Assembly (NCBI GenBank): GCA_016927515.1
Contig: JAFGMN010000287.1
Coordinates: 1 to 47,428 of the forward strand
Source of the DNA: a candidate division CSSED10-310 bacterium
GTDB lineage: Bacteria; CSSED10-310
Length of the DNA: 47,428 bases
Reading direction: 5' to 3'
Shown here: piece by piece, positions 1 through 46,027 of the stretch
Position numbering within the stretch: position 1 is the first letter of the stretch
Layout: each line of letters starts with the position of its first letter
Program-made: the position numbers and the translations under genes
The notes under the pieces: generated by a model
Database searches by the model: none
What the model was told of the DNA's origin: nothing
Seen by the model: only the letters and a program-made list of their open reading frames with translations

Positions 1-645
1 GCATCCATCCAGATTTCGGTCGATGGATCGACATTCGTTTCCATTTGGGAAAACCTGGATGTTGAAACAGCGGACAGCGAATGGATTCTGCAAACACTGG
101 ATATTTCCGCGATCGCCGATGGTCAGCCTGCCGTGTATCTCCGGTGGGTGATGGGCGAAACGGATCAGGGCTGGCGATATTGCGGCTGGAATATCGACGA
201 TGTCGTTTTGACGTCGACTCGGCCCTGTACGATGCCCACACCGACACCCCGACCCACCGCTACACCAGAACCACCCAAAATTCCCGCAACGGGAATTCAT
301 TTGACCATGGCGGATCCCAGCCTGATTCCGGGGGATACGTTCGATCTCACCTATCGCCTCAGAAACGGTATGTCCACTGCCTTAACAGTCGACATTTTCA
401 TCGCATTGGAAGTATACGGTCATTTTTGGTTCTGGCCGACATGGGTCGATATGGACGACGGCATTGCATTCAGCCCGGATGTCACGGTGGGAGCTGCATC
501 GGAAATCACCGGGGACGTTCTCCGGTTCACATGGCCAGATGTCACAGGACCCGCTCCGGGTCTGTTCTTCTATGGACTTCTGCTTGACAGCGTATCCGGC
601 GGCCTGATTGGTGACCTGACTGGTATCTGCTGGGAATTCATGTAA
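1..645 (+). CDS. 3' end of secreted protein with TP-rich linker and shared C-terminal domain (partial)
   Basis: The reading frame is open from base 1, so the gene starts upstream of the window. The first ~75 residues look like a beta-jelly-roll domain ending in GWNIDDVVL, a signature common at the C-terminal side of secreted peptidases (M6/immune-inhibitor-A type) and MAM-like domains. A short linker (PTPTPRPTATPEPP) follows, then a ~115-residue C-terminal domain containing PGDTFDLTYRLRN and ALEVYGHFWFWP. That domain recurs in the products at 9062-10207 and 11714-13519. The catalytic part, if any, lies outside the window, so the function cannot be named. The protein is presumably secreted or surface-exposed. 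A strong terminator follows directly. Confidence 0.8.
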   Translation, partial: ASIQISVDGSTFVSIWENLDVETADSEWILQTLDISAIADGQPAVYLRWVMGETDQGWRYCGWNIDDVVLTSTRPCTMPTPTPRPTATPEPPKIPATGIHLTMADPSLIPGDTFDLTYRLRNGMSTALTVDIFIALEVYGHFWFWPTWVDMDDGIAFSPDVTVGAASEITGDVLRFTWPDVTGPAPGLFFYGLLLDSVSGGLIGDLTGICWEFM

Positions 646-4135: not shown

Positions 4136-5012
4136 TACACGTTCTCCTCGGATTCCGTTTTCCCGCTGGCGAAGCGCCGGGGTCTGGCTTTTTGCGCTGG
4201 TAGTGACCCTTGCTATGGCGGTACATCAGCGAAAAACCGGGCCGACTCAGCCAGTGGAAGGAACCGTCCGGATTGATCGAACGGTTTACTCCTACCGGTT
4301 GATTCGGAATCCAACGACGGATGCTCCTCTGACAGTGATGGTGCCGGCACCGGTAGGATACCGGGTTGAGGTCATCTGGCGTGAATACCCGACCACGCGG
4401 CCGTGGAAGCGAATTTCAGCGGATATTCATGAGGGATTCGCTATGGCCGCTATTCCTATTCAACCGTCAGCCGGAAAAGTGGAATATTACGTGGAATTAT
4501 TAGGAGAAACGGAACGGGTACTGATTCCTGGTGCTAGCGGCAGAATCATTGCCCGATACAAAGATCCGGTGCCGGGATGGGCCCTGATTCCTCACATCCT
4601 GTTAATGTTTATTGCCATGGTATTATCCAACCGGTTGGGTGTAGGGATTATTCTCGGTGAACCCACCCGCCCGGATCTGATCATCATGGCGTTCGTTGCG
4701 CTGACGCTGGGGGGACTTATCTTCGGTCCGATTGTGCAAAATGAGGCATTCGGTGCGCCATGGACGGGATGGCCGGTTGGCCACGACCTGACAGACAACA
4801 AAATCGCGGTTACCTGGATTGCTTGGCTGATCGCGATTATACGGCTCCGGCGAGATTCAGCATGCCGCATATGGGTACTAACAGCGGCGATCATCACCTG
4901 TGCTACCTATCTGGTACCCCACAGTTTACTGGGTTCTCAGCATAATTATGACCCGGAACCATCGGTGATACAGGATTCATACGATTCCGCGATTCCGTTG
5001 ATCCGGCCTTGA
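4128..5012 (+). CDS. Membrane protein of unknown function, about five transmembrane segments
   Basis: I do not recognise the family. The start at ATG 4128 is chosen because GGAGGT lies 11 bases upstream; the ORF-track start at 4089 is deeper inside the previous gene. The 294-residue product has an N-terminal hydrophobic segment (VWLFALVVTLAMAV), then a ~110-residue soluble, beta-rich stretch (residues 30-145). Four more hydrophobic segments follow (for example HILLMFIAMVL and IIMAFVALTLGGLIF). The topology suggests an extracytoplasmic domain anchored by a small membrane bundle. It overlaps the M61 peptidase gene by 8 bases and precedes the cobalamin riboswitch. Confidence 0.7.
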   Translation: MPNTRSPRIPFSRWRSAGVWLFALVVTLAMAVHQRKTGPTQPVEGTVRIDRTVYSYRLIRNPTTDAPLTVMVPAPVGYRVEVIWREYPTTRPWKRISADIHEGFAMAAIPIQPSAGKVEYYVELLGETERVLIPGASGRIIARYKDPVPGWALIPHILLMFIAMVLSNRLGVGIILGEPTRPDLIIMAFVALTLGGLIFGPIVQNEAFGAPWTGWPVGHDLTDNKIAVTWIAWLIAIIRLRRDSACRIWVLTAAIITCATYLVPHSLLGSQHNYDPEPSVIQDSYDSAIPLIRP

Positions 5013-5035
5013 CATTTTAAACTAAATTAGTACCA

Positions 5036-5212
5036 TCTGGATTTGCCTCACGGAGAAGCCGGTGTAAATCCGGCACTGTCCCGCAACTGTGACCGGGGAC
5101 GTCTCCCGCACGATATCCATGGGATATCAGCCACTGGAAAAGAACCATCCGGGAAGGCGCAGGAGATTGAATGATCCGGAAGTCAGGATATCCGGGGAGG
5201 CGTTATACCAGC
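5036..5212 (+). promoter_or_regulatory. Cobalamin (B12) riboswitch
   Basis: The conserved core of the cobalamin aptamer is present in order: AAGCCGGTGTAAATCCGGCA, CTGTCCCGCAACTGT, CCACTGG, CCGGGAAGGCG, and GATCCGGAAGTCAGGATATCC, the last being the B12 box. It lies directly upstream of a TonB-dependent receptor gene, the usual target. Binding of adenosyl- or methylcobalamin should lower expression of the downstream uptake genes. The outer boundaries are approximate. Confidence 0.95.
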
Positions 5213-5247
5213 CGTCCTTTCGTGGGGTGAAGGATTGGTTGATTTCC

Positions 5248-5273
5248 GAAAGCCGGCCCCAGTGCCGGCTTTC
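5248..5273 (+). promoter_or_regulatory. Hairpin in the riboswitch expression platform
   Basis: GAAAGCCGG and CCGGCTTTC form a perfect stem with a short loop, between the aptamer and the start codon of the receptor gene. No T-run follows, so it is not a classical terminator. Just downstream, TCACCCC (5280-5286) can pair with GGGGTGA (5224-5230) and abuts the GGGGAAA that may serve as ribosome binding site. Translational control is therefore plausible, but this is inferred. Confidence 0.5.
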
Positions 5274-5302
5274 ATCGTCTCACCCCGGGGAAATGATCGC
5301 GG

Positions 5303-7273
5303 ATGATTCCGTGGTGCAAACGATTACGTGCTTTTTTTATTGCCGGAGCCATCGGTTTCATTATTGCCGGGTGTGGGGTTGATTGCATTGGCGTATCAGC
5401 GAGCGAAGACCCGGATGATACCGAAACAAAACCATTGGAATACAAGGAAACGATCGAAGTGAACGCTCGACGGCCGGATGATCCCAGTGGGATTATCGAT
5501 TTGCCGGCGTTTGTGACGACGATTGAAATTGATGCCCAGGGAACGCGATTCCAGACCCTGCCGGAACTTCTAAGTGGTGTTGTCGGAGTGACAATCAAGG
5601 ATTTTGGGGGACTCGGGAACCTCTCCACTGTGTCCATCCGTGGCAGCGCTGCCAACCAGGTTCTGGTGCTTCTCGATGGGATGCCTCTCAATACCGCTTC
5701 GGATGCGGGGATCAACCTGGCAACACTCCCGCTCGATGCCATTGAAAAAGTCGAGGTGTTGCGCGGAGCAGATTCCGCTGTTTACGGTAGCGGCGCTATG
5801 GGCGGTGTGATTAATCTAATTACGCGTCGTGCCCGTGAAGCTGGTTGGCAGACATCGGGAAGCCTGTCCATGGGGTCATATGATACACTGAATCTCAACA
5901 CAGGATTGTGGCATAGTCTACCCCATTTCGATTGGCGGGTGATTGCGAATTATCGTCGAAGTGTCGGCGATTTTCCGTTTCGAAATAACCGCGGAACCGA
6001 ATTCAATCCCGATGACGACACAATCGATCGCCGGGAAAATAATGCGTTCGATGCGATCGGTTTGACCACGGGTTTTCGACTCAAACCTGCTCAGGATCAA
6101 GAATTCTCGGGAACTTTCGATGGGTTTTATGACGATAAAGGAATCCCCGGAATGATCACGTTCCCATCTCCGCATGCGAAGCAGAAAGACCGTCGTATTA
6201 CCGGAATTCTTCGGTATGAATCGGTCTGGCCCGGCGAAACCGGATACCGATTATTCGCAGAAGCATCGGGGAAATCCATCGCTTTGGATTTCGATGACCC
6301 GCTGGGTGAACAAACGGGGGTTCCCGTTACGACACGGCAACGGACCCGGGTATTGGGTGGGCGGATGGGTCTGGACGTTTATCATCTGGCAGGCAGCGGC
6401 GGCATGACTGTTCATTGGGAAGACGAGCGGCTTGATGATACGCATTTCGGTGTGCCTGACCGGACAACGGTTGCGGTCAATCTTCACCATGATCTGAGCG
6501 TTTTGAACGATTCGCTCTGGCTGACAACGATGCTGCGCTATGACACGATTTCTGATGCCGATGAACACTGGAGTCCCAAATTCGGGGTACGATGGTTTTT
6601 AACCGATCGTGTGTCGGTCCGGGCCAATGCAGGGATCGGATTTCGAGCCCCATCATTCAACGAGTTGTTTATGGAAGCTGGAATGATCGTCGGAAATGCG
6701 GATCTGGTTCCTGAAGAGTCCGTTAGTTACGATCTGGGGATTACGTGGGAAGCGTCGAGGGGACATCTGGAAGCAGCTGTTTTTCAAATAGATTCCGATG
6801 ACCTCATTCAGTACGTGCTCGTTTCGGGTTTCCGATACAAACCGTTTAACATCGGGAAGGCCCGATCACGCGGATTTGAGATTGACGGGAGCTACCGGGT
6901 CGGCGCTGGATTTGTGCTGTCGGGATCCTATACCTGGGATGAAGCGATGGACGAATCCGGTGAACCCAATGTGGATGGAAAACAGATTCCCGGGAGACCG
7001 GAACATGATGTATTCGCTCGAGTTGCCTATGAATACGATCCAGTGACTGTGTGGTCAGAATGGCACTATCTCAGCGGTAATTTTGTGACGCGGGCCAATA
7101 CGAAGGAACTGGATGACCGGAATACCGGTAATCTCGGAATATCGTGGAACATAAATCAATCCATCACCTGTGGAGTCGAAGTGAAGAATATCCTTGATGA
7201 CGATGTCGTGGATATCCGCGGATTTCCTCTCCCACCCCGATCAGTGATGGCAACTGTGCAGGTTATGCGATGA
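5303..7273 (+). CDS. btuB: TonB-dependent outer-membrane receptor, probable cobalamin transporter (BtuB-like)
   Basis: A 656-residue TonB-dependent receptor that should import cobalamin or a related corrinoid across the outer membrane. After a signal sequence it has a plug domain (about residues 45-170). Hallmarks are LPELLSGVVGVTIKDFG, VSIRGSAANQVLVLLDG, and VEVLRGADSAVYGSGAMGGVINLITRR. A ~480-residue beta-barrel follows, including FRAPSFNELF. The size matches BtuB. The specificity call rests on the cobalamin riboswitch immediately upstream. The signal sequence contains IIAGC, which resembles a lipobox and would be unusual for this family. The stop codon overlaps the next gene (ATGA), so the two are translationally coupled. 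Confidence 0.9.
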   Translation: MIPWCKRLRAFFIAGAIGFIIAGCGVDCIGVSASEDPDDTETKPLEYKETIEVNARRPDDPSGIIDLPAFVTTIEIDAQGTRFQTLPELLSGVVGVTIKDFGGLGNLSTVSIRGSAANQVLVLLDGMPLNTASDAGINLATLPLDAIEKVEVLRGADSAVYGSGAMGGVINLITRRAREAGWQTSGSLSMGSYDTLNLNTGLWHSLPHFDWRVIANYRRSVGDFPFRNNRGTEFNPDDDTIDRRENNAFDAIGLTTGFRLKPAQDQEFSGTFDGFYDDKGIPGMITFPSPHAKQKDRRITGILRYESVWPGETGYRLFAEASGKSIALDFDDPLGEQTGVPVTTRQRTRVLGGRMGLDVYHLAGSGGMTVHWEDERLDDTHFGVPDRTTVAVNLHHDLSVLNDSLWLTTMLRYDTISDADEHWSPKFGVRWFLTDRVSVRANAGIGFRAPSFNELFMEAGMIVGNADLVPEESVSYDLGITWEASRGHLEAAVFQIDSDDLIQYVLVSGFRYKPFNIGKARSRGFEIDGSYRVGAGFVLSGSYTWDEAMDESGEPNVDGKQIPGRPEHDVFARVAYEYDPVTVWSEWHYLSGNFVTRANTKELDDRNTGNLGISWNINQSITCGVEVKNILDDDVVDIRGFPLPPRSVMATVQVMR

Positions 7274-9039
7274 AAACAACACGATTGATGAACCCATTCA
7301 CCTCGAAATATGGGCGATGGCTGCCCATAATCCTGGTGCTCTGCGCTGGCTTTGCTGGATCCGGTCCAAAAGCGGCTGCTGCAGTTAGTGTTCTGGATCT
7401 GGAATCCGGCTGGGTAATGGACATAACTGAAATCATGGAAACGATCACCGGACTGGATCAAATCGACGGGATCACTTCCCTGGCGGCGGGAAATGCTGGC
7501 GATGATCTGATGATCGTTGAAGGGGGAGGAGACGTTGTTGTTCTTGATACCCATACATGGGGAATTTTAGCATCCATCAGCGAGATTGATCTCCGCCGTG
7601 TTTTCGGACTCCCCGATGGCGATGGTACAGTATCTTCCCTGCGTCTCGAAACCGCAGCCTCCGATTCACTGATGTACCGGGATGCTACCTACGGCGATTG
7701 GTATCGACTGGACCTGATCAACGGCCATGCCGAATTGTTTACCCTGTTGCCGATGCCTCATACGTTCTATACCGGATTCAGCTTCACATCTCCGTGGGAT
7801 GTTGGAATGATTGTGTGCAGCGCGGGTGGAGCATGGTGGTACGAAACACTGCCTGATCGTCAAGCCATCGATCTGAATCTGGCTGAAATGGTTCACATCA
7901 CCCCGACGCATGTGACAGAGTTTGAAATCGCTGTTTCCGGCAGGTTCTGGCGTTTTCTGATCGCGGTCGGCGCCGGCGGTTCACCCGGAACGCCAACTCC
8001 GACTCCCGGGCCGGGAACGCCGACTGCGACGCCGACGCCCGGAGGCACAGACTATTCCGTTCTGGTCGCCCACGGGGGAAGCAGCGAGGATATCTGGCGG
8101 ATTCGATCCAGTGACTACGGCATCGAGCCGGGTCTGGCCCTGACCGGTGCAGCAGCGAATCAAATCGTGCTGCATGACGGCGAGCTTTACGTCATCAACA
8201 GCCTGTCTCACTCAATAACCGTATATGAAGCCGGATCGGTAGCCTTCAGGCGGGAAATGTCCACTGGGATCGGGAAAAATCCGTTTCTTATGGATTTTGT
8301 GGATAACGATCACATCTATGTGACACAGTTTACCGCCAATGTCGTGACTCGGATGAATTGCCGAACCGGAGCGATTGTGACCGATATTCCGATGCCGGAT
8401 GAATTTCCTGCTGATCCCGGCGACACGACCTGGCCTCGTCCGATGGGTATCGAGGTGGTCGGCGGGATTGCCTATGTCGCGTGTGCCAATTTGAATGATA
8501 CCTATTGTGCCGGTGGTCCGGGGATTCTTGTTCGGATCGATACGGCAACCAACCAGGTGATCGGCTGGACGGAAAGCGGTGGAAGGAATGCTGCCGGAGT
8601 GATCTATGATCCGAGATGGTCTGATTGGCTCTGGATAACGAATGCCGGGGACTACGTCACCGGATCAGGTTTCTCCGAAAACGGGACAATTGCTCTGTAT
8701 TCTCTGACCGGCGGCACAATTGTCGATAGCATTCCGGTGTTTGACGCTCCGTACGAAATCGCATTTGGTGCAACAACGGCCTATTTCTCCAGCGCTGCTG
8801 AGGGTCGCATCGGACGGCTGAGTCTCGATGGTTTATCCCTGTTGACATCGATAGCGCTGCCCACTGCCGGCCATGGTCTGAACTATGTATCCGGCCTGGC
8901 CATGGGGCCTGATCAGCGGCTCTGGATACTCGAGTTCAATCATGATCGGCTGATTACTTTGGATACTCGAACGGGAGACGCTCTTGTCAACGATAGTACT
9001 ATTGGTGATGGTCCGGATGCATTGGTGATCGTTGAATAA
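7270..9039 (+). CDS. Secreted beta-propeller (YncE-like) protein, possible surface cobalamin-binding partner
   Basis: A 589-residue product with a signal peptide (WLPIILVLCAGFAG, cleavage probably near residue 37). The N-terminal part is ~200 residues. A TP-rich linker (GTPTPTPGPGTPTATPTPGG) follows near residues 238-258, then ~330 residues with repeated beta-propeller blade patterns (LVRIDTATNQVIGW, LITLDTRTGDALV). Bacteroides B12 loci encode the surface propeller BtuG next to BtuB. By analogy this protein, coupled to BtuB by a 4-base overlap and behind the same riboswitch, may capture corrinoids at the cell surface. The analogy is by context and fold only. It lacks the C-terminal domain shared by its neighbours. 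Confidence 0.7.
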   Translation: MKTTRLMNPFTSKYGRWLPIILVLCAGFAGSGPKAAAAVSVLDLESGWVMDITEIMETITGLDQIDGITSLAAGNAGDDLMIVEGGGDVVVLDTHTWGILASISEIDLRRVFGLPDGDGTVSSLRLETAASDSLMYRDATYGDWYRLDLINGHAELFTLLPMPHTFYTGFSFTSPWDVGMIVCSAGGAWWYETLPDRQAIDLNLAEMVHITPTHVTEFEIAVSGRFWRFLIAVGAGGSPGTPTPTPGPGTPTATPTPGGTDYSVLVAHGGSSEDIWRIRSSDYGIEPGLALTGAAANQIVLHDGELYVINSLSHSITVYEAGSVAFRREMSTGIGKNPFLMDFVDNDHIYVTQFTANVVTRMNCRTGAIVTDIPMPDEFPADPGDTTWPRPMGIEVVGGIAYVACANLNDTYCAGGPGILVRIDTATNQVIGWTESGGRNAAGVIYDPRWSDWLWITNAGDYVTGSGFSENGTIALYSLTGGTIVDSIPVFDAPYEIAFGATTAYFSSAAEGRIGRLSLDGLSLLTSIALPTAGHGLNYVSGLAMGPDQRLWILEFNHDRLITLDTRTGDALVNDSTIGDGPDALVIVE

Positions 9040-9061
9040 AATGATTGGAAAAGGAAAAACG

Positions 9062-10207
9062 ATGGGTATGAAACGGCTGATTGGATATCTGATTCTGACC
9101 ATCATGGCGATAGGCACCGTATGGGCGGATCCCTTCCCGGACGCCATAATTGAAATTGTTCCGGGAAGCGGCGGGGGATATGGAAGCGGCGGATTACCAG
9201 ACATCGTCCTTGGACCGCCTGTTGGAGCCGGATTATCCGGTGGTTCTCTTGATGTGTTCAGCTTGGGTGACGGCGGTAGCATAACGCTTCAATTCGTCGA
9301 CAACCGGGTTTTCGATGGCCCCGGCACTGACCTCATTATTTTCGAAAATCCGTTCTATGTTGCCGGTAACCCGGAAAACGTGTTCTGTGAAGTTGCTTTC
9401 GTTGAAGTCAGTATGGACGGCGAAACGTTTTTCCGCTTTCCAAATGATTACAATCCCGATGGTCAACCGGTGAACAATCCGGATAACTGGCTGGGATTCG
9501 CCGGCGTTATTCCGGTTATTAGTCATCCCGATAACGGTGTAGACCCAACGGATCCGTTAACGGCCGGTGGAGACTGTTTCGACCTGGCCGATGTCGGGTT
9601 GAGTGAGATCCGTTTTATTCGGATCATCGACACCGGTGAGGGCGATGCAGCCGCAGCTGATGATGATGGAGATACCATTGATGATCCCGGCATGCCGGGT
9701 GGCGATTACGCGGGTTTTGATCTTGATGCGATCGCAGCCGTTCACAGCATCGAGTTGTTCACACCGACACCCGAACCGACAGCGACACCGACACCCGAAC
9801 CAACCACCGAAATGACGCCAACGCCAACGCCAGAACCGACGTTCACTGGGACAGCCACACCGTCCTCCGGGATCGTTTTCGATCTGGCGTTATCGGGTGA
9901 GCGGTTCACGACGGGTGATGCATTTATCCTTTCCACTCGATATCTCAATGAGGGTGAATCGCTCACCGGCATTGCTCGCTACATCATTCTGGATGTGGAG
10001 GGACTCCTGTTTTTCTGCCCGGGATGGACCCAGGAACCGAATTTTGATGTCGTGGCGATCCCTACGGGGGAATCCCTGGATCGCGTACTGGATTTTGTAT
10101 GGCCGGAAGTGTCCAGTCACCTAGACGGCGTTATCGTGTGGGGCGGAATCGTCGCACCTGATGGATGTGTATTGGGGAATGTGGATTGGGTTGAATTCAG
10201 TTTTTGA
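9062..10207 (+). CDS. Cell-surface protein with TP-rich linker and shared C-terminal domain
   Basis: The ATG at 9062 is chosen because AAGGA lies 6 bases upstream; the track's TTG at 9032 lacks a good site. The 381-residue product has a signal peptide (LIGYLILTIMAIGTVWA). A ~210-residue domain follows, with the pattern DVFSLGDGGSITLQF, FENPFY, VEVSMDG, DLADVGLSEIRFIRIID. I recall this type of surface protein from B12-linked loci in other phyla. Next is a TPTPEPT linker and a ~110-residue C-terminal domain (DLALSGERFTTGDAF) shared with the products at 1-645 and 11714-13519. It is likely part of the riboswitch operon (22 bases after the propeller gene). The ligand is unknown. Confidence 0.7.
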   Translation: MGMKRLIGYLILTIMAIGTVWADPFPDAIIEIVPGSGGGYGSGGLPDIVLGPPVGAGLSGGSLDVFSLGDGGSITLQFVDNRVFDGPGTDLIIFENPFYVAGNPENVFCEVAFVEVSMDGETFFRFPNDYNPDGQPVNNPDNWLGFAGVIPVISHPDNGVDPTDPLTAGGDCFDLADVGLSEIRFIRIIDTGEGDAAAADDDGDTIDDPGMPGGDYAGFDLDAIAAVHSIELFTPTPEPTATPTPEPTTEMTPTPTPEPTFTGTATPSSGIVFDLALSGERFTTGDAFILSTRYLNEGESLTGIARYIILDVEGLLFFCPGWTQEPNFDVVAIPTGESLDRVLDFVWPEVSSHLDGVIVWGGIVAPDGCVLGNVDWVEFSF

Positions 10208-10294: not shown

Positions 10295-11479
10295 ATGATA
10301 AAGCAACTGTTTGCTGCTTGTTTCGTGCTGATGAGCATTGTCGCAGCGGTGAAAGCCGTGCCAGCGGGTTATATATCGGAGCCAGTTATTCTTTCTGATC
10401 CACCGACGACTCAAAGCGGAGTCTTTAGCGTCGATTCGATGGGGCGGCTTTATTTCGGTCATGCCACAACTGACGATAGCTTGCGGGATCCGCGGACTGG
10501 CCGGGGAGCCAGTTCCGAGATATGGATATGGGACAGTGTGAACGGGGGATATTCGCAATTCTATGATTCTCCTGGTACCAACCCCAGTATCAACAGTGTT
10601 GCCGGAATTTGGATTGATGAAGGAACGAGCCCATGGACATATTTCATTGCCGATCAGCAGCCTGATCCTGCCAATCCCTGGACGACGGGAGCGGTGTGGA
10701 TTGCCCAGGATCTGACCGGGGACGGGGATATTATGGACGGTGGCGATCGGCTGGATTTGCTGACGGTGGATACCAGTGTTCTGGTGTATATCAGCGACAT
10801 CATCCGGGATGATATCACGGGTGAAATCTATGTGACCAATGCTGAAGGGCTCATGGGGAATCCAATGGTTTACCGGCTATTTGACGCCGATTCCAGTGGA
10901 TTTATCGAAGCGAGTGAGATGACGGCATATTATCTTCTTGCCAATAATTCTGCGTATGCCGGCGGGTTGACGTTTGGTGAGGGACTAGACGAAATATACA
11001 CCCATGAAAGCACCGGATCGGTCTATCGGCTCAGGGATCTGAACGATGATGGGGATGCGCTGGATAGCAATGAGGCGATTCTCTTTGCATCGCTCCCCAT
11101 TGCCGGCGCTTTCGATATCGAATCCGATCCCGATGGAGATCTGTTTGTCACGGCGTCCGATTGGTCGACGTACACGCATGCAATCTACGAGATCACCACC
11201 TCGGGTTCTCCCGTTGTTACGGTGTTTGACGATCTGACCTCCGCTGTCGGTTCCATGGGCGGTATTGCATTTGGTCCCGGTCTGCATTTCGAGCCCGCTC
11301 CAGTGACACAAGGGGCTCGCTTATATCTGAATTATACAACCTCATCGTGGACCGATCCGGGACAGATCGGCTGTTATTACGGCCAGCCGACCGGTCCGGT
11401 GGAAACTCCTACCATGGGAACCTGGGGTATTGTGCTGCTGATTGCAGGCATCGGCACAATGCTTATCCGCCGCTCATGA
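10295..11479 (+). CDS. Secreted protein with IPTL-CTERM-like C-terminal sorting signal
   Basis: A 394-residue product; AAAGGAG precedes the ATG. A signal peptide (LFAACFVLMSIVAAVKA) is followed by a ~340-residue beta-rich region. It contains acidic loops resembling calcium-binding EF-hand or dockerin loops, notably DADSSGFIEASEM, plus DLTGDGDIMDGGD and DLNDDGDALDSNE. The C-terminus ETPTMGTWGIVLLIAGIGTMLIRRS has the layout of IPTL-CTERM/PEP-CTERM tails: a Pro-Thr motif, then a transmembrane helix, then a basic end. Such tails are recognised by exosortase or archaeosortase-like enzymes; none is encoded in the window. Its role is unknown. It may be co-transcribed with the B12 surface genes (87-base gap). 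Confidence 0.75.
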   Translation: MIKQLFAACFVLMSIVAAVKAVPAGYISEPVILSDPPTTQSGVFSVDSMGRLYFGHATTDDSLRDPRTGRGASSEIWIWDSVNGGYSQFYDSPGTNPSINSVAGIWIDEGTSPWTYFIADQQPDPANPWTTGAVWIAQDLTGDGDIMDGGDRLDLLTVDTSVLVYISDIIRDDITGEIYVTNAEGLMGNPMVYRLFDADSSGFIEASEMTAYYLLANNSAYAGGLTFGEGLDEIYTHESTGSVYRLRDLNDDGDALDSNEAILFASLPIAGAFDIESDPDGDLFVTASDWSTYTHAIYEITTSGSPVVTVFDDLTSAVGSMGGIAFGPGLHFEPAPVTQGARLYLNYTTSSWTDPGQIGCYYGQPTGPVETPTMGTWGIVLLIAGIGTMLIRRS

Positions 11480-11713: not shown

Positions 11714-13519
11714 ATGAAGCGAGCGCTGTTGTTTTGCGTATATGTCCTATTTGGCGTGGTGACGGTTTCGGCGGACCGAGGGGTTCCTCCTTCGATGATT
11801 ACCGGCTTGTCGCTAGTGGCAGATTCTTCACGGATCAAACTCGGTCTTCCCGATATCGATCAGTGGGTTGCGGAAGATGAAATGGATGAAACCGCGGGAA
11901 TCCCTTTGCGGATCGGCGCGTTCCGGCCCGTTCCAGAGAATTCTAGCGCTTGGGCCGATTGCGTTGTTGATGTGGACTACGGCGTGATTTGGCGTCTTGC
12001 GATCACATCTCCGGGAGCCCTTGAAATCAAATTGTATCTTACGAACATCAAGCTCACGGAGCGTTGCGAACTGTTTGTTTATCGGGAAGGCGAGGCGGAG
12101 GCCGATCGCTTTTCACGGTCGGATGTGTCCGATGATGCGACATTATGGTCATGGGGGACAACCGGTGATTCCGTTGTTTTGGAATGGCATCACGATCTTG
12201 CGCCGGGCGAAACCTGGACAGATGGAACACCTCCGCCCTTTACTGTCCAGGCGATCAGCCATATTTATCGCGATATGGTTTCCACCATGGGAACCCGTGA
12301 AGGGAGTTGTCATAACGATGCTACGTGTGACGCAGATTACATCAACCAGCGCGATGCATCGGCATACATCGAGTTCAACGATGGTGGTACCTATATCTGT
12401 TCCGGAACCATGCTCAATTCAGCGGTTCAATCGTTTACACCATACTTTTTAACGGCCCATCACTGCATTTCAACCAATACGGTGGCGGCTTCGGTTAAAG
12501 CCTGGTTTTTCTATCATACACTGAATTGCGATGATCCCGCACCGGATCGCGGATACCGGACGGTGATGGGCGGTACGTTACTGGCTACGGGACCGGACCA
12601 GGGAGGCAGCGGGTCGGATTTTAGTCTGCTCCAGTTAAACAACGCTGACTACAGCGGCGTGTTTTTTGCTGGATGGGATCGCACCGCATTAACCACGGGA
12701 ACAGAGGTCACGGGAATTCATCATCCGGATGGAGCATACAAGCGGATCAGCTATGGGACGGTGCGTTCGACGGGGTACAGCGGTCAATGGGGAGTCAATT
12801 GGGACCGGACGTCCAATCCGGGAGTCACCGAAGGTGGATCGTCTGGAAGTGCATTGTTCCATCATGGGACTCACCGCGTTGTGGGACAGTTGTGGGCAGG
12901 TTCATCCTCCTGCAGCTATCAGAACGGCCGGGACTACTATGGTCGGTTCGGCTTATCGTTCCAGAACGGCAGTTTGAGCCAGTGGCTGGGGAATGCCACT
13001 GCTGTGGATGGCGCGTATTACAATAGCTCAAATCCGACTCCAACCCCGCCGCCGACAGCCACACCCACTCCTCCCCATTCAGCCACGTTCACTCCAACAC
13101 CCCGCCCCACGGGAACGTACATTCCGACCAATACGCCGCATGCTTCCTGGACACCGACCCCCAAGCCCGGATTGACAGTGGATCTGGCTATGTCCACCAC
13201 ACTGTTTCACCCCGGCGATTCGTTCTGGTGTCAGGTTCTGATCAGCAACAACGGGACCAGCACATATCCCAGCGTCGCGTTGTTTGCCGTCCTCGATATC
13301 CATGGAAACCTGTTCTTTCTGCCGGATTTTACTGATTTTAGTTACTACGGATTATTTCTCCCGCCGGGTCAGCAGACGATCGTTTTGATTCCTGCTTTCG
13401 AATGGCCGGAAGGTGCCGGGTCAGCCGAAGGCATCCAATGGTATGCAGGAATCACTGACAGTGGGATCAGCCGTTTACTGAGCAATTTCGATACACTTAC
13501 ATTTGGGTGGACGGAGTAG
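11714..13519 (+). CDS. Secreted trypsin-fold serine protease, lysyl-endopeptidase-like, with TP-rich linker and shared C-terminal domain
   Basis: The start at ATG 11714 follows AAGGAG. The 601-residue product has a signal peptide (LLFCVYVLFGVVTVSA) and a pro-region of ~180 residues. The S1-family catalytic domain has triad residues visible as LTAHHC (H250), GSDFSLL (D302) and EGGSSGSAL (S377). GSCHNDATC near the domain start resembles Achromobacter-type lysyl endopeptidases. A long TP-rich linker follows (PTPTPPPTATPTPP onward), then the ~115-residue C-terminal domain (DLAMSTTLFHPGDSFW, LDIHGNLFFLPDF) also seen at 1-645 and 9062-10207. It probably acts outside the cell or bound to the surface. 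Cleavage specificity is not established. Confidence 0.85.
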   Translation: MKRALLFCVYVLFGVVTVSADRGVPPSMITGLSLVADSSRIKLGLPDIDQWVAEDEMDETAGIPLRIGAFRPVPENSSAWADCVVDVDYGVIWRLAITSPGALEIKLYLTNIKLTERCELFVYREGEAEADRFSRSDVSDDATLWSWGTTGDSVVLEWHHDLAPGETWTDGTPPPFTVQAISHIYRDMVSTMGTREGSCHNDATCDADYINQRDASAYIEFNDGGTYICSGTMLNSAVQSFTPYFLTAHHCISTNTVAASVKAWFFYHTLNCDDPAPDRGYRTVMGGTLLATGPDQGGSGSDFSLLQLNNADYSGVFFAGWDRTALTTGTEVTGIHHPDGAYKRISYGTVRSTGYSGQWGVNWDRTSNPGVTEGGSSGSALFHHGTHRVVGQLWAGSSSCSYQNGRDYYGRFGLSFQNGSLSQWLGNATAVDGAYYNSSNPTPTPPPTATPTPPHSATFTPTPRPTGTYIPTNTPHASWTPTPKPGLTVDLAMSTTLFHPGDSFWCQVLISNNGTSTYPSVALFAVLDIHGNLFFLPDFTDFSYYGLFLPPGQQTIVLIPAFEWPEGAGSAEGIQWYAGITDSGISRLLSNFDTLTFGWTE

Positions 13520-37325: not shown

Positions 37326-37928
37326 ATGCAATGGGTTTCGGGAATTGAGAATCGTATAAACGTGCTGATCGGCCGCCTTTCAGGGTCTCTGCCATCGACT
37401 CCCACCCTGTGTTCCGAACGCTGGGATCGACATCAATTGGCACAGGTGATGACGTCGTGGCCGAACGAAGTCATCATGCATGTTCATCCGGAATGGGTTG
37501 AGGAACGGATAGCAAAGATGTCACCGGATGGACGACTGCACCAATTCAATGAACTCAACAATGAACAACAAGCCCGTCTCGCTTCACTTTTCCCATTGAT
37601 GGCATCACGCTCACGTTTTCACCGGTTTTTGATGATTGACCTACCCTGGGTCCACTGGCGGCGGTTAATCGATTGCATGGATCGGCTTGAGCGAGCATTT
37701 CCGGGTATTACCTTGGCGACATGCTATCGATCCGCTTGGTTACGGCAGGATGTAATGGAGCGAAATCGGTCAAGGGAGTGGCTCTCGTATAAGCTTCATC
37801 CCCGGATTTCAGCGGTTTTTTTGCGGGAACTGAACGAAGGAACTCATGAAATCAATGATATTCAACGGGATCAGGTAGAGCGTTTCATTGGTGCCGTGCT
37901 GGAAAGGACGTTCGATTATGCCGAATGA
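37326..37928 (+). CDS. First gene of T3SS operon, unknown protein, possibly SctK-like
   Basis: A 200-residue soluble protein with GGAAAGGAG before the ATG. No motif identifies it clearly. Its composition (many Trp, Arg, His and Leu), its length and its position directly before sctL match the SctK (YscK/OrgA-type) accessory protein of the sorting platform, which varies strongly in sequence. HPRISAVFLREL near the C-terminus stands out. It overlaps sctL by 11 bases. The SctK proposal rests on position and size only. Confidence 0.5.
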   Translation: MQWVSGIENRINVLIGRLSGSLPSTPTLCSERWDRHQLAQVMTSWPNEVIMHVHPEWVEERIAKMSPDGRLHQFNELNNEQQARLASLFPLMASRSRFHRFLMIDLPWVHWRRLIDCMDRLERAFPGITLATCYRSAWLRQDVMERNRSREWLSYKLHPRISAVFLRELNEGTHEINDIQRDQVERFIGAVLERTFDYAE

Positions 37929-38565
37929 ACAAGAATCATCTGTTAAAACAATGGTTCGCTGGGTTTCTCAAACCAGCCGTCAGGCACATCGTGAAGCTGA
38001 AAAAATCATCGAAATGGCCCGGGAAAACGCGAATCGGATTATCGAAGATGCTCACCGGCAATCCAAAGCAATTCATGCAGAAACGAAACGGAAAGCGATG
38101 CTTGAGTGTCGAAAAAAAATGGCTGATCGAATCCTGGAAATACATGCCTATTGCACGCGATTGGAGCAATCCGTGAAACACGAAATCCTTGAATTGGTAA
38201 TTCGAACAGCAGAAGCAGTTCTATTCGAAGCAGTGGCAGTGGATCCATCGATCGTTATGGCTCGAATCGAACGGGGATTGGAATTGAATCGACGACAACG
38301 CTCTGTTCGGCTTTTTGTATCACCTGAAACCGCCCGGCAACTGACCCCCCGAATCAAGGCTGTGTCCCGGGAAATCCTGCTCGATACTCTGCTGACTGTT
38401 GAGTCGGATCCCAGCTTAAAAAACGGTGACTGCCGATTCGTTACGCCTGCGGGCACGATATCCATGACGATTTCAGAGGGATTTCGCATAGTGCGAAAAA
38501 TCCTCTCTCAAACCATTGAAGAATGGAAAGGAGATTTGCAGGATGAGAACAACACGAGAGCGTAA
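37918..38565 (+). CDS. sctL: T3SS stator protein SctL (FliH/YscL-like)
   Basis: A 215-residue product from ATG 37918, chosen over 37888 because AAGGA lies upstream. An N-terminal charged coiled coil (QAHREAEKIIEMARENANRIIEDAHRQSKAIHAETKRKA) is followed by a globular part with a VIRTAEAVLFEAVAVDPSIVMARIERGL-type FliH/V-ATPase-E-like domain. SctL binds and controls the ATPase SctN and links it to SctQ. The order before sctN is consistent. Overlaps both neighbours. Confidence 0.75.
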   Translation: MPNEQESSVKTMVRWVSQTSRQAHREAEKIIEMARENANRIIEDAHRQSKAIHAETKRKAMLECRKKMADRILEIHAYCTRLEQSVKHEILELVIRTAEAVLFEAVAVDPSIVMARIERGLELNRRQRSVRLFVSPETARQLTPRIKAVSREILLDTLLTVESDPSLKNGDCRFVTPAGTISMTISEGFRIVRKILSQTIEEWKGDLQDENNTRA

Positions 38566-38842
38566 AATGATGGATGATGCCGCTGCCATTCCGAGATTCC
38601 CAATCGTGGAATCGGTGATTCAGAATGGCCGCGTCCCGGAAACCATGACTATGATCCGGAAAATGCATCTCAAGCTCCGCGCACTTGAACAAACACACGC
38701 CACTGAAATTGAAAAGAAGCGGCTCCACATTGCTGCTGAAGGGCTCGATGTGCTTGAGAAACTGCTGAATACGTTGGTTGAACTGAGTCAACGGTCCAGC
38801 CGCACCACGCCGTCAGGAGGTTGCTATGGGCGGAAGAATTGA
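38543..38842 (+). CDS. Small coiled-coil protein in T3SS operon, unknown
   Basis: A 99-residue product from ATG 38543, preceded by AAGGAG 9 bases upstream; it overlaps sctL by 23 bases. The middle (MTMIRKMHLKLRALEQTHATEIEKKRLHIAAEGLDVLEKLLNTLVELS) is predicted to form amphipathic helices. Size and helical nature are compatible with a T3SS chaperone or co-chaperone, for example of the needle subunit, but no family motif is seen. Confidence 0.55.
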   Translation: MRTTRERKMMDDAAAIPRFPIVESVIQNGRVPETMTMIRKMHLKLRALEQTHATEIEKKRLHIAAEGLDVLEKLLNTLVELSQRSSRTTPSGGCYGRKN

Positions 38843-39179
38843 TGGAATTACACCCGGAATACCGGTGACCGATGCATCATCCCCTCGCGATTCCAAACAG
38901 GCATCGAAATTCGACCGATTTATGCGAGGACTTGGCACGGTTGCCACTGCCGCAGGAAAAGCCGCATTGAAATTGATTCCCGGAGCAGAGGCTGTGGATA
39001 CATTTTTTAGTGAGTTGGGTGCATCGTCTATGATGGGGCAATATGGCGGAATGTCTCCATATGAGATGCTCGGATTGCAACAGCAGATGCTTCAGGAAGC
39101 ACGTGTTTTTACGGTCCTGTCGAATGTCATGAAAGTTCGGCACGACGCTGCCATGAACGCGATACGGAATATCCGATAA
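38826..39179 (+). CDS. Small T3SS-operon protein, candidate needle or early secreted substrate
   Basis: A 117-residue product with CAGGAGG before the ATG, overlapping the previous gene by 17 bases. The N-terminal half is Gly/Ala/Ser-rich. The C-terminus (GLQQQMLQEARVFTVLSNVMKVRHDAAMNAIRNIR) is an amphipathic helix. T3SS needle and rod subunits end in comparable helices, and no SctF gene is recognised elsewhere in the operon. This is therefore a candidate needle-like or early substrate protein. The resemblance is structural impression, not a family match. Confidence 0.5.
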   Translation: MGGRIDGITPGIPVTDASSPRDSKQASKFDRFMRGLGTVATAAGKAALKLIPGAEAVDTFFSELGASSMMGQYGGMSPYEMLGLQQQMLQEARVFTVLSNVMKVRHDAAMNAIRNIR

Positions 39180-39208
39180 CCCCTAACGATTGTATAAAGG
39201 AGATTACG

Positions 39209-39649
39209 ATGAAGCACATACAGATGGATCAATTGATACCACCGCTAACCGGGCACGAAATAATCGGAATGACCGGAAAGAGCGTCCTCGATTTGATGAT
39301 CGAAGCCGCTTATCTCCTGGGATGTGCGGGGAAATACCGGGATGCCGAGACATGTTTTCGCTCGGTTCTAGCGATTCAACCGGAGCGCGTTGGTGCGGCT
39401 TTGGGGTTGGGAAACGTTCTGCTGATGCAGGGTCGTGTCAAAGAATCGGAGGAAGCGTACGAACAAGTGCTGGAATGGGATCCAAGCGATCCGGCCGCAC
39501 GGGCATTTCTTGGGGAACTGTATCTTTGCTCAGGCAGAATGAATGAAGGAAGAGAAATTCTCGAATCGGTTTACTGGGATTATCCTGAAACTGAGGCAGG
39601 CACCTGGGCATGGAATCTTCTCCAACTCAGCCGGGAGATCGCATCATGA
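39209..39649 (+). CDS. TPR protein, T3SS chaperone-like
   Basis: A 146-residue product; AAAGGAG precedes the ATG. Three tetratricopeptide repeats are visible: AYLLGCAGKYRDAETCFRSVLAIQP, AALGLGNVLLMQGRVKESEEAYEQVLEWDP and ARAFLGELYLCSGRMNEGREILESV. T3SS class II chaperones (SycD/SctG type) are TPR proteins of about this size that bind needle or translocator subunits. The start of sctI overlaps the stop (ATGA), so the two are coupled. The client is unknown. Confidence 0.7.
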   Translation: MKHIQMDQLIPPLTGHEIIGMTGKSVLDLMIEAAYLLGCAGKYRDAETCFRSVLAIQPERVGAALGLGNVLLMQGRVKESEEAYEQVLEWDPSDPAARAFLGELYLCSGRMNEGREILESVYWDYPETEAGTWAWNLLQLSREIAS

Positions 39650-40014
39650 ACCTGACAACCGGCTTAGCACGGCCCAGCATGGCTTCACCTCGAATTCCCC
39701 TAAACAACGGTTCACCTGTTGCATCAACCGGACCCGCTGAATTCGGTAGAATTTTTCAACAGACACTCCAAGAATCCACACGCGGACAAACCATGACTCA
39801 TACATTGATTTCCGTGCTGGATCGGTTGAACGATAAATCAATCAAAGTCACTGAATTGCTCCAAAAAGTCATCTCTGGACAGGAAATGAAACCCTGTGAT
39901 CTGCTCGCTGTCCAGGGTGTCATGCTGAATTTCAACCGGGATCTGACCCTTGTATCCAAACTGCTGGAGCAGATCGTGAACGGTATAAAAAACATTATCC
40001 AGACACAGGTATAA
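39646..40014 (+). CDS. sctI: T3SS inner rod protein SctI (YscI/HrpB-like)
   Basis: A 122-residue product from ATG 39646 after GGGAG. The C-terminal half (MKPCDLLAVQGVMLNFNRDLTLVSKLLEQIVNGIKNIIQTQV) matches the conserved SctI ending, with LLxxQ, SKxxE and a final QTQ. The N-terminus is disordered and Ser/Pro-rich. SctI forms the inner rod linking the export gate to the needle. Position directly before sctJ is common in injectisome operons and supports a non-flagellar T3SS. Confidence 0.75.
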   Translation: MNLTTGLARPSMASPRIPLNNGSPVASTGPAEFGRIFQQTLQESTRGQTMTHTLISVLDRLNDKSIKVTELLQKVISGQEMKPCDLLAVQGVMLNFNRDLTLVSKLLEQIVNGIKNIIQTQV

Positions 40015-40018
40015 AACC

Positions 40019-40849
40019 ATGCCATGGATTCAGCGATACATCTGCCGAACGATCCTCTGCTCGCAGTTTGTGTTCCTGGTTGCATGCCGGGTTGAACTCC
40101 ATCATGGATTGACAGAAAGTCAGGCCAACGAAATTTTACTTTCGTTGATCCAGGTGGGTATCGATGCAGATAAACAGAAGGATTCCACCAACTCGGATCG
40201 CTGGTTGGTGACCGTGCCGGAGAAATCGGAAGCCGAGGCATTGGATCGGTTGATTCGCTTGGAACTGTCCCGGGAGGATCCTCCGGGGTTTTCCGAGCTG
40301 TTTAAAAAAGATGGTTTCATACCATCAGAGTTACAAGAGAACACACGATTCGTAACAGCCTTGGCAGGCGAATTGCAAAAAACACTGGAATCCGATGATT
40401 CGGTTGTCAAAGCACGAGTGCACATTCATTTGCTGCCCGATTCTCCGGCTTATGGGAAAAAAGCATCTCTCTCCGGATCAGCTTCGGTTTTTCTGAAACT
40501 AGCCCCTGGCTTGCCGGAAAGCAGGACACTGTCCGATGAATCCATTCGAAAACTGGTTGCCAACAGCGTGACGAGCCTCAGTGAATCGGATGTTTCCGTC
40601 GTCCGCTCTATCGGATATGCATCCAGAGTCTCAACAGAAACGGAATCAATCGGCGGTGAATCGTTCCGACAGGATTACCCGCCGACGGATTCCATCCACT
40701 TACCGTTCTCCATAATCTACATTTCATTGTTAGTCGGTGGAATCTTTGTTTTGGCAGGTGTTCTATACCTGATCATTCCCCCCGCTCTGCATAGAAGGAG
40801 GTTATCCCGTGTTTCTGCAAGGGAAACCATGGCAAACAATGCTCACTGA
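40019..40849 (+). CDS. sctJ: T3SS inner-membrane ring lipoprotein SctJ
   Basis: A 276-residue YscJ/PrgK-family protein. Signal peptide with lipobox FLVAC (lipid Cys at residue 23), two ring-building domains, for example LTESQANEILLSLIQVGIDADKQK and VKARVHIHLLP, and a C-terminal membrane segment (FSIIYISLLVGGIFVLAGVLYLII). It forms the inner-membrane ring together with SctD. Its size is that of an injectisome SctJ, half of flagellar FliF, which argues against a flagellum. It overlaps sctN by 41 bases. Confidence 0.92.
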   Translation: MPWIQRYICRTILCSQFVFLVACRVELHHGLTESQANEILLSLIQVGIDADKQKDSTNSDRWLVTVPEKSEAEALDRLIRLELSREDPPGFSELFKKDGFIPSELQENTRFVTALAGELQKTLESDDSVVKARVHIHLLPDSPAYGKKASLSGSASVFLKLAPGLPESRTLSDESIRKLVANSVTSLSESDVSVVRSIGYASRVSTETESIGGESFRQDYPPTDSIHLPFSIIYISLLVGGIFVLAGVLYLIIPPALHRRRLSRVSARETMANNAH

Positions 40850-42194
40850 ACTCCAATCCACCCGGATGTTCCACGAGACCGGATGTCTTGAGGCGGTCAA
40901 TGGAGTCATGCTGACGGCACGATTGAACCACGTCCGCATCGGTGAAATATGCACCGTTGATTCACAAGGTGGTCATCTTCAGGCGGAAGTCGTCGGATTT
41001 AGAGACAATCAATGTCTGTTGATGCCTTTCGGTTTCACGGATGGCTTGCATGTGGGTGCAGATGTGAAACCAACTGGCCAACCCTTTTGTTTTCCTTGTG
41101 GATCATTTCTAAAAGGAGCCGTTCTCGATGGTCTGGGATCCCCCATAGAGATTAAACTGAAAAACACACCCCATTTAGGGATACTTGCTTCACCTAAGTC
41201 TACAAAAGCGGCATACCGAAGTGTTCATTCATCGCCGCCTGATCCACTTCGACGCAATCGCATCACGAAACCCTTGTTAACAGGAATTGCAGCCATCGAT
41301 GCATGTCTGACAATTGGCATCGGTCAGCGCGTCGGCATTTTCGCTGCTGCAGGGACCGGAAAAAGCACGTTGTTGGGGCAGATCGCGCGGACAGCTACAG
41401 CGGATGTCATCGTAATCAATCTGATCGGTGAACGGGGAAGAGAAGTCCGAGAATTTATCGAGGACCATCTGACTGATGAAGGGATGCAACGATCGATTGT
41501 TGTTGCCGCTACGTCGGATCAGCCCGCAATCATCCGGATGAAATCCGCGTATATTGCGACGTCAATCGCTGAGTATTTTCGCGATCAGGGATATCATGTC
41601 CTTCTTATCATGGATTCGGTGACGCGGTTTGCTCGTGCCATGAGAGAAATGGGTTTGGCTCGAGGTGAATCACCGGCTCGGTCTGGATACCCGCCCTCGG
41701 TATTCGCGGAGCTTCCACGGCTTCTTGAACGGGCAGGATCGAGTGAAACCGGGTCGATCACCGGGATATATTCCGTTCTCGTTGATGGAGATGACCTGAC
41801 GGAACCCGTTGCGGATGAAGTTCTGTCAATTCTGGATGGGCATATAATCCTGTCCCGGCAATTGGCTGCTGAAAATCATTATCCCGCAATCGATATTCTC
41901 CAGTCAAAAAGCCGAGTGATGCATTACATCGTGTCTTCCACCCAGCGACAAATGGTCAATGAACTGATCGGTATCTACGCAAAGTATATCAACAATCAGG
42001 ATGCTTTGCGCTTCGGATTATACCAAAGCGGAACGAATTCTGAACTGGATCGGGCAGTAGAAATGAAACCTCGAATCGATGATCTGCTTTGCACGGTATG
42101 GGAACGAACGGAATCATTGGAGGTTCTTGAAAACCAGTTGAATAACGTGCTCACAGGACCTGGTGTCGATAGAACAAGGAATGACGCGTCATGA
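40809..42194 (+). CDS. sctN: T3SS ATPase SctN
   Basis: A 461-residue F1/flagellar-type ATPase that powers unfolding and export of substrates. The GTG at 40809 has AAGGAGG at the right distance. Walker A reads FAAAGTGKSTLL (about residues 178-188), with Ala for the first Gly, which the [AG]xxxxGK[ST] pattern allows. NLIGERGREVREFIEDHL, Walker B in VLLIMDSVTRFARAMREMGLARGESPARSGYPPSVFAELPRLLERAG and the GSITGIYSVLVDGDDLTEPVADEVLSILDGHIILSR block are standard. Overlaps sctJ and the SctO-like gene. Confidence 0.95.
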   Translation: MFLQGKPWQTMLTELQSTRMFHETGCLEAVNGVMLTARLNHVRIGEICTVDSQGGHLQAEVVGFRDNQCLLMPFGFTDGLHVGADVKPTGQPFCFPCGSFLKGAVLDGLGSPIEIKLKNTPHLGILASPKSTKAAYRSVHSSPPDPLRRNRITKPLLTGIAAIDACLTIGIGQRVGIFAAAGTGKSTLLGQIARTATADVIVINLIGERGREVREFIEDHLTDEGMQRSIVVAATSDQPAIIRMKSAYIATSIAEYFRDQGYHVLLIMDSVTRFARAMREMGLARGESPARSGYPPSVFAELPRLLERAGSSETGSITGIYSVLVDGDDLTEPVADEVLSILDGHIILSRQLAAENHYPAIDILQSKSRVMHYIVSSTQRQMVNELIGIYAKYINNQDALRFGLYQSGTNSELDRAVEMKPRIDDLLCTVWERTESLEVLENQLNNVLTGPGVDRTRNDAS

Positions 42195-42673
42195 CTTCAT
42201 ATCGATTTCAATTCATGATCGATGAGTTTGAGCGGATTCTGAAGCAGTCTGCGATAGAAGTGGTTCGACTGAAGACTGCTCTCGGCGATACCAGGTGCAA
42301 CCTGGAGCGAGTCATTGAGATGTTGGACCGCATAGACGAAGTCGCCGGATCGCTGCGGAACGATATGACGAATTCCATGGGAATCCGATCCGTCAATGAA
42401 CTGCGAACATCCATCGACCGCATACATGGTTACCGAGTATGGCACGCACACATGAAGAATCGAGCGGTCGAATTGGATGCTCTCCACCAGACATTAGAAC
42501 AACGATGTGATGCAGCTCAATGTCGTCTGATCCATGCCTATCGCCGAATGAAGGGCTTCCAGATACATCGGGATCACAGTCGGAAAAACACGCGGAATAA
42601 GCAACTGAAAACGGAAAAGCGTCAGAATGAAGAGATCCTTGCCATCTACTCCGAAGGAAAGGGAAGCAAATGA
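42191..42673 (+). CDS. sctO: T3SS stalk protein SctO-like (FliJ/YscO-like)
   Basis: A 160-residue protein predicted to be almost entirely helical coiled coil with many charged residues. No sequence motif is diagnostic, but SctO/FliJ proteins are recognised mainly by length, coiled-coil nature and position right after the ATPase gene. All three fit. It starts within the sctN stop (ATGA overlap) and ends with the same arrangement into the next gene. SctO contacts the ATPase hexamer and the export gate SctV. Confidence 0.65.
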   Translation: MTSYRFQFMIDEFERILKQSAIEVVRLKTALGDTRCNLERVIEMLDRIDEVAGSLRNDMTNSMGIRSVNELRTSIDRIHGYRVWHAHMKNRAVELDALHQTLEQRCDAAQCRLIHAYRRMKGFQIHRDHSRKNTRNKQLKTEKRQNEEILAIYSEGKGSK

Positions 42674-45745: not shown

Positions 45746-45756
45746 GAGGAACAAAC

Positions 45757-46026: not shown

Positions 46027-46027
46027 T

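What the first reader, a model, noticed from the sequence alone, without database searches (positions are those of the whole stretch)
5036..10207. Cobalamin riboswitch locus with BtuB, a beta-propeller and a cell-surface protein
A canonical B12 aptamer precedes a TonB receptor that is translationally coupled to a secreted beta-propeller, followed by a surface protein. This parallels the BtuB-BtuG arrangement in Bacteroides, where a surface propeller captures cobalamin. Here the partners use TP-rich linkers and a C-terminal domain rather than a lipid anchor. It may be an independent B12 capture system. No BtuC/D/F genes are in the window.
Basis: partly seen in the sequence, partly recalled or inferred. 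Interest (0 to 1): 0.7.

Follow-up and report, generated by a model that had tools for sequence, protein, structure and literature searches.

The report
Vitamin B12 capture operon outside Bacteroidota
A bacterium of an uncultured phylum carries a vitamin-B12-controlled set of genes for an outer-membrane B12 importer plus two or three secreted proteins that most likely catch B12 for it, like a system thought to be special to gut Bacteroides, and the same genes sit behind B12 switches in many other phyla.

Summary
In detail: RF00174 at 5052-5193 (80.5 bits), then a BtuB-like receptor whose stop overlaps the start of a secreted propeller (ATGA), then a secreted surface protein. A fourth gene (10295-11479) belongs to the same conserved cassette. 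The genome is from candidate phylum CSSED10-310.

The propeller resembles BtuG: the 12 best PDB fold matches of its model are all Bacteroides BtuG chains, and its profile matches BtuG by sequence (E 1e-16 to 5e-19). The surface protein has no Pfam family; its confident model (pLDDT 90.6) has one PDB match with E<=0.001, B. theta BtuG1, the BtuG that carries a BtuH B12-binding domain.

The B12 link is conserved: all 11 sampled genomes with the propeller, all 12 with the surface domain, and all 17 found with an independent model have a cobalamin riboswitch beside it; so do 61 of 80 named loci. The genome shows no CbiC, 34 B12-binding-domain matches, and a BtuF-D-C-like locus on another contig.

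So this is a homologous, cross-phylum BtuB-BtuG(-BtuH-like) capture system, not an independent invention. The C-terminal domain is a generic sorting-type domain (86 matches in the genome). B12 binding itself is untested.

The parts
5009..5036 (+). sigma-70-like promoter (TTGACA-16-TACCAT, 10/12) just upstream of the aptamer
   Evidence: consensus match only
5052..5193 (+). cobalamin riboswitch aptamer (RF00174)
   Evidence: 80.5 bits, E 2.4e-18
5194..5302 (+). probable expression platform: stable nested hairpins that take in the GGGG before the btuB start codon; fits control of translation start
   Evidence: -60.5 kcal/mol, z -3.75; mechanism inferred
5303..7273 (+). BtuB-like TonB-dependent outer-membrane receptor (656 aa), TonB-box-like ETIEVNA after the signal peptide
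   Evidence: TonB box by eye
7270..9039 (+). secreted BtuG-like propeller protein (589 aa), translationally coupled to btuB
7330..7983 (+). N-terminal beta-rich domain of the propeller protein, shared with two relatives (G001, G004) only
7984..8052 (+). Thr/Pro-rich linker between the two domains of the propeller protein
   Evidence: model pLDDT below 50 in part of it
8056..9036 (+). beta-propeller domain shared across phyla; closest solved folds are B12-bound BtuG
9062..10207 (+). secreted surface protein (the ORF opens at 9032; likely start ATG 9062)
9122..9748 (+). BtuH-like surface domain (209 aa), no Pfam family, distant relative of NCBIfam LIC_13355
9749..9868 (+). Thr/Pro-rich linker of the surface protein
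9869..10204 (+). generic C-terminal domain of the lineage (also at 292-642 and 13169-13516)
10295..11479 (+). fourth gene of the conserved cassette: secreted protein with DxDxDG-type loops and an IPTL-CTERM-like tail, function unknown
   Evidence: follows the surface gene also in G001, G003 and G004; no Pfam match over cut-off; tail and loops by eye

Best explanation
This is a B12-repressed operon for high-affinity corrinoid capture and outer-membrane import. When cellular B12 is low, the riboswitch lets btuB and the genes after it be expressed. The propeller protein probably sits over BtuB as a B12-binding lid, as BtuG does, and hands the corrinoid to BtuB for TonB-driven import; the separate surface protein probably catches corrinoid further out, as BtuH does, held at the surface by its flexible TP linker and a lineage-wide terminal domain. 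Import to the cytoplasm would go through the BtuF-D-C-like transporter encoded elsewhere in the genome. Shown here: the riboswitch, gene order, folds by prediction, homology of the propeller to BtuG, conserved linkage to B12 riboswitches across phyla, no CbiC found in this genome. Inferred: ligand binding, lid action, surface location, the BtuH-like role, repression by B12.
For: RF00174 in front of the operon. Propeller model: the 12 best PDB matches are all BtuG chains (E 2.5e-17 to 4.8e-15), most of them solved with bound cobalamin; the profile hits BtuG chains by sequence, E 2.8e-16 to 4.7e-19, and a DUF5074 protein in a riboswitch-btuB-btuG-btuF-like locus (L242, E 2.4e-34). Surface domain model pLDDT 90.6, pTM 0.90; only PDB match with E<=0.001 is 8blw_B, B. 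theta BtuG1 (E 9.3e-5), which carries a BtuH domain (PMC10404256); BtuG chains without that domain are not among the 50 matches listed. Linkage: 11/11 propeller genomes and 12/12 surface-domain genomes have RF00174 nearby; 17/17 genomes found with the separate NF033170 model do; 61/80 named loci have it upstream on the same strand within 6 kb. In L032 btuB, propeller, BtuF-like, BtuC-like and surface genes share one region with two riboswitches. Propeller and surface domain are fused in L030, L173 and L246, as BtuG and BtuH are in BtuG1. Need for B12: 34 B12-binding-domain matches in the genome, no CbiC in 8 genomes of the phylum; BtuF-D-C-like locus present.
Against: No binding or expression data. 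The propeller does not match Pfam DUF5074, and a generic archaeal YVTN propeller (1l0q) scores better by sequence than BtuG. The surface domain has no sequence match to any PDB chain, BtuH included, the fold match is modest (TMq 0.51), which domain of 8blw_B was aligned was not shown, and 7BIZ (BtuH2) was not among the 50 matches listed. The nearest named relative of the surface domain, LIC_13355, is described as a laminin/plasminogen binder (PMC11891782). The B12-specific receptor model is far below its cut-off. 19 of 80 surface-domain loci show no riboswitch; six of those have about 2 kb or less of sequence upstream.
Confidence: 0.78

Rival explanations
1. The receptor imports corrinoid, but the propeller and the surface protein do not bind it; they are generic surface proteins (YVTN S-layer-like propeller, F5/8C or CBM32-like adhesion domain) that anchor the receptor or the cell to particles.
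For: Generic YVTN propellers match the profile (1l0q, E 6.1e-36); after 8blw_B the surface model matches CBM32 and F5/8C domains; LIC_13355 was reported as a laminin and plasminogen binder (PMC11891782).
Against: Both domains keep to cobalamin riboswitches across phyla, the surface domain even where no propeller gene was found nearby (L031, L169); BtuG outranks all other propellers by fold.
Confidence: 0.12
2. An independent, convergent B12 capture system, unrelated to BtuG/BtuH.
For: No DUF5074 match, no lipid anchor, different domain architecture and TP linkers.
Against: Profile homology to BtuG, fold matches to BtuG and to BtuH-bearing BtuG1, lipobox-like signals in related propellers of other phyla (L028, L029, L037), and the same propeller-surface domain fusion (L030, L173, L246) as BtuG-BtuH in BtuG1.
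Confidence: 0.07
3. The locus takes up another riboswitch-linked substrate such as cobalt, or mainly corrinoid precursors rather than finished B12.
For: Cobalamin riboswitches also control cobalt transport and corrinoid salvage genes in other bacteria (general knowledge); BtuG2 also binds cobinamide (PMC10404256).
Against: Best receptor model is the B12 receptor; best fold matches are BtuG; a BtuF-like gene accompanies the cassette in L032, L242 and L245 (BtuF assigned by eye).
Confidence: 0.05

Closest known systems
BtuB-BtuG 'pedal bin' complexes of Bacteroides (BT1954, BT2095; PMC6143338, PMC10404256)
   Same: B12 riboswitch, btuB next to a surface propeller; fold and profile match to BtuG
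   Different: Not a lipoprotein here, not DUF5074 by Pfam, extra N-terminal domain, TP linker, no btuFCD in the locus; phylum CSSED10-310, while BtuG was reported as exclusive to Bacteroidetes
BtuH / BtuG1 H-domain (PMC8941943, PMC10404256)
   Same: Separate or propeller-fused accessory domain in B12-riboswitch loci; best PDB fold match of the surface domain is the BtuH-bearing BtuG1
   Different: No sequence match; terminal domain after a TP linker instead of N-terminal PKD (Ig-like) domains; binding not tested
DUF4465 B12-binding jellyrolls (BtuJ; PMC12751083, PMC13398666)
   Same: Secreted beta-rich accessory family in B12 loci of several phyla
   Different: No DUF4465 match for any of the 12 members of the surface domain
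LIC_13355 lipoprotein of Leptospira (NF033170; PMC11891782)
   Same: Only named family that the surface domain matches (E 4.6e-20; all 12 members)
   Different: Below the family's cut-off; described as laminin/plasminogen binding; no riboswitch link shown in Leptospira

Membership tests
Cobalamin riboswitch RF00174 | match over the gathering score | tested here: met
   80.5 against 31.5 bits
BtuB (TIGR01779 equivalog) | score over the family's curated cut-off | tested here: not met
   best NCBIfam hit, but 175.2 against 599.7 bits
BtuB (as a TonB-dependent receptor) | Plug plus TonB-dependent barrel | tested here: met
   PF07715 and PF00593 over cut-off
BtuG | YncE/YVTN beta-propeller with BtuG as nearest solved fold | tested here: met
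   12 best PDB fold matches are BtuG; profile hits
BtuG | Pfam DUF5074 (PF16819) | tested here: not met
   no match in the protein or the genome
BtuG | encoded beside btuB behind a B12 riboswitch | tested here: met
   window and the 10 other propeller genomes
BtuG | surface lipoprotein with lipobox and export signal | tested here: not met
   no lipobox in the window protein by eye; lipobox-like in L028, L029, L037
BtuG | pM-fM corrinoid binding and stable complex with BtuB | not testable with these tools
   needs binding assay and co-purification
BtuH | fold of the B12-binding domain | tested here: inconclusive
   only PDB match with E<=0.001 is BtuH-bearing 8blw_B, TMq 0.51; aligned region not shown
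BtuH | sequence homology to BtuH | tested here: not met
   no PDB chain matched at E<=5 with the family profile
DUF4465 (BtuJ) | Pfam match | tested here: not met
   none of 12 members at E<=1
LIC_13355 lipoproteins (NF033170) | score over the family's cut-off | tested here: not met
   71.9 against 120 bits; homologous but below the cut-off

The most novel reading that the evidence does not exclude
The surface domain defines a new corrinoid-binding family, found at 385 or more loci in many phyla (Myxococcota, Sumerlaeota, Planctomycetes, WOR-3, CSSED10-310 and others), used alone, fused to or beside BtuG-like propellers, and attached to the cell by whatever anchor each lineage has. BtuB-BtuG-type capture would then be a widespread bacterial strategy rather than a Bacteroidetes speciality.
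Probability: 0.65. Interest if true: 0.7.

Novelty: new variant of a known kind. Interest (0 to 1): 0.6.

Why it matters
BtuG was reported as exclusive to Bacteroidetes (PMC6143338) and the surface-lipoprotein mode of B12 uptake as a Bacteroidetes trait (PMC10404256). The loci here put the same kind of capture set, with a domain family absent from Pfam, in environmental phyla such as Myxococcota, Sumerlaeota, WOR-3 and CSSED10-310. It gives a direct, cheap test (does the domain turn pink with B12?) for hundreds of unannotated 'cell surface proteins', and suggests that relatives of the Leptospira protein LIC_13355, studied as an adhesin, be tested for corrinoid binding.

Tried and rejected
Independent invention: rejected because of homology to BtuG. 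DUF4465 membership of the surface domain: no match. T9SS origin of the C-terminal domain: no SprA match in G000-G007, although SprA is found in 51 other sampled genomes. A sequence-level comparison of the surface domain with BtuH failed because no Bacteroidota BtuH sequence could be fetched: DUF5074 searches led to loci with BtuG but no BtuH, and the phylum searched from G060 held only 9 genomes. A propeller tree was not built: only 8 propellers without btuB or surface gene nearby were on hand as outgroup, some of them duplicates or possibly B12-linked. The Leptospira link was checked in papers: the two cobalamin riboswitches located in PMC3953431 are not at LIC13355, so nothing is claimed there.

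Full report
WHAT IS THERE. The window is contig C54 of a 3.46 Mb, 78% complete draft genome. RF00174 lies at 5052-5193 (80.5 bits, E 2.4e-18) and is the only one found in the genome. A promoter-like site stands at 5009-5036. Downstream of the aptamer the RNA folds strongly (z -3.75) and takes in the GGGG before the btuB start, which fits control of translation start, not tested.

The first gene, 5303-7273, is a TonB-dependent receptor (PF07715, PF00593) whose best NCBIfam model is the B12 receptor TIGR01779 at 175 bits, far below its cut-off of 599.7. It ends in ATGA, overlapping the start of the propeller gene. The propeller protein has an N-terminal beta-rich domain, a TP linker and a C-terminal propeller; only the propeller part is shared with other phyla. 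The surface protein has a conserved 209-residue domain, a TP linker and a 112-residue terminal domain. No terminator-like site was found on the + strand between the third and fourth genes.

FOLD EVIDENCE. AlphaFold2 with an alignment of 16 relatives models the propeller domain at pLDDT mostly 90-98. Against 350,542 PDB chains the 12 best Foldseek matches are BtuG chains of Bacteroides (8okv, 8bmz, 3dsm, 8bn0, 8bmy, 8bai, 8bmx), most of them with cobalamin bound. The profile also finds BtuG chains by sequence (E 2.8e-16 to 4.7e-19), though an archaeal YVTN propeller scores better (E 6.1e-36). The surface domain model has pLDDT 90.6 and pTM 0.90. Its only PDB match with E<=0.001 is 8blw_B, BtuG1 of B. 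theta, the BtuG with a C-terminal BtuH domain (PMC10404256). BtuG chains without that domain are not among the 50 matches listed, so the match is presumably to the BtuH part, but the aligned region was not shown. The next matches are CBM32 and F5/8C domains; for BtuH itself only modest resemblance to an alginate lyase and no clear structural homologue was reported (PMC8941943).

CONSERVED LINK TO B12. Of 60 sampled genomes 11 have the propeller and 12 the surface domain. In all of them the region carries RF00174. An independent model, NF033170 from Leptospira lipoproteins, finds the surface domain in 17 of 193 genomes; all 17 have RF00174 in the region (L170 weakly, 39 bits). These samples overlap: the window's own genome and nine others are shared between them. 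Of the 80 best named loci, 61 have a riboswitch upstream on the same strand within 6 kb by a model built here (tally of 60 plus L069, where the script picked another copy). Two of the weak ones were confirmed with Rfam (L086, L095) and one (L071) was not, though that locus holds btuB and two propellers. The 19 loci without a match to the model had none with Rfam either; six of them have about 2 kb or less of upstream sequence. Expected chance matches at the threshold used were about 0.1 in the whole search.

Gene orders vary: riboswitch-btuB-propeller-surface (this lineage), surface-propeller-btuB (L028), propeller-689 aa-surface-btuB (L029), an ATPase-like gene, btuB, two propellers, surface (L033), btuB followed by a fusion of propeller and surface domain (L030, L173, L246), riboswitch-surface alone (L031, L169). 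In a myxobacterial locus (L032) btuB, propeller, BtuF-like and BtuC-like genes follow one riboswitch, and an unknown gene and the surface gene a second one. By eye, relatives show lipobox-like signals (L028, L029, L032, L037) or T9SS-type tails (L030, L034): the cargo is conserved while the anchor changes.

THE TERMINAL DOMAIN. The C-terminal domain of the surface protein is not special to B12. It has 86 matches in this genome and 76, 105 and 90 in G001, G003 and G004, none in three other families of the phylum. Of 18 copies fetched, 17 end within 3 residues of the stop codon. It has no Pfam or NCBIfam family and the phylum's sampled genomes lack SprA. It looks like a lineage-specific sorting or surface-attachment domain. 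In G003 a copy is N-terminal to the propeller.

PHYSIOLOGY. The genome has 34 matches to the B12-binding domain and no CbiC, a marker of corrin-ring synthesis, in any of 8 genomes of the phylum (single marker, incomplete genomes). A BtuF-, BtuD- and BtuC-like trio lies on contig C8 without a riboswitch; its substrate is not proven.

MECHANISM. Most likely the propeller is a B12-binding lid on BtuB and the surface protein an outlying catcher, by analogy with BtuG and BtuH (PMC10404256, PMC8941943). Shown: linkage, order, predicted folds, homology of the propeller. Inferred: binding, lid action, surface location, repression by B12.

NOVELTY. BtuG was reported as found only in Bacteroidetes (PMC6143338); DUF4465 B12 binders are known in several phyla (PMC13398666). 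Searches of the held library for BtuG gave no report of this set in other phyla, judged from titles and abstracts; subscription papers and preprints are not held. This is a new variant of a known kind, with a surface-domain family that appears unnamed apart from LIC_13355.

Noticed in passing
window 292-642, 9869-10204, 13169-13516; 86 matches in G000: A ~112-residue C-terminal domain, often after a Thr/Pro-rich linker, with 76-105 matches per genome in one order-level group of CSSED10-310; 17 of 18 fetched copies end at the stop codon; no Pfam or NCBIfam family and no SprA: a candidate new sorting or surface-anchoring domain.
   Followed up: partly
window 37888-46771: Type III secretion gene cluster: FliH/SctL-like, SctJ (TIGR02544 preferred over FliF), SctN, a FHA plus FliN/SctQ-like protein, SctR, SctT/FliR-like; reads as a non-flagellar system in an uncultured phylum.
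   Followed up: partly
L032:10096-11529 and similar myxobacterial loci: An unknown secreted protein (477 aa, no Pfam match) is the first gene behind the riboswitch in front of the surface gene; the spacing of riboswitch and surface gene suggests the same in many Myxococcus and Corallococcus loci: another possible B12 accessory family.
   Followed up: no
window 9122-9748 against NF033170: The surface domain is a distant relative of Leptospira LIC_13355, studied as a laminin/plasminogen binder; the paper's main text does not mention cobalamin (PMC11891782).
   Followed up: partly
L029:14697-16766, L035:7645-8160: Further unknown lipoprotein-like genes inside riboswitch-led cassettes (689 and 171 aa).
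   Followed up: no
window 7330-7983: N-terminal beta-rich domain of the propeller protein, confidently modelled in most parts but seen only in G000, G001 and G004; role unknown.
   Followed up: partly
G000, 34 places: Very many B12-binding-domain proteins (mostly 450-600 aa frames, possibly B12-dependent radical SAM enzymes) in a genome in which no CbiC was found.
   Followed up: no
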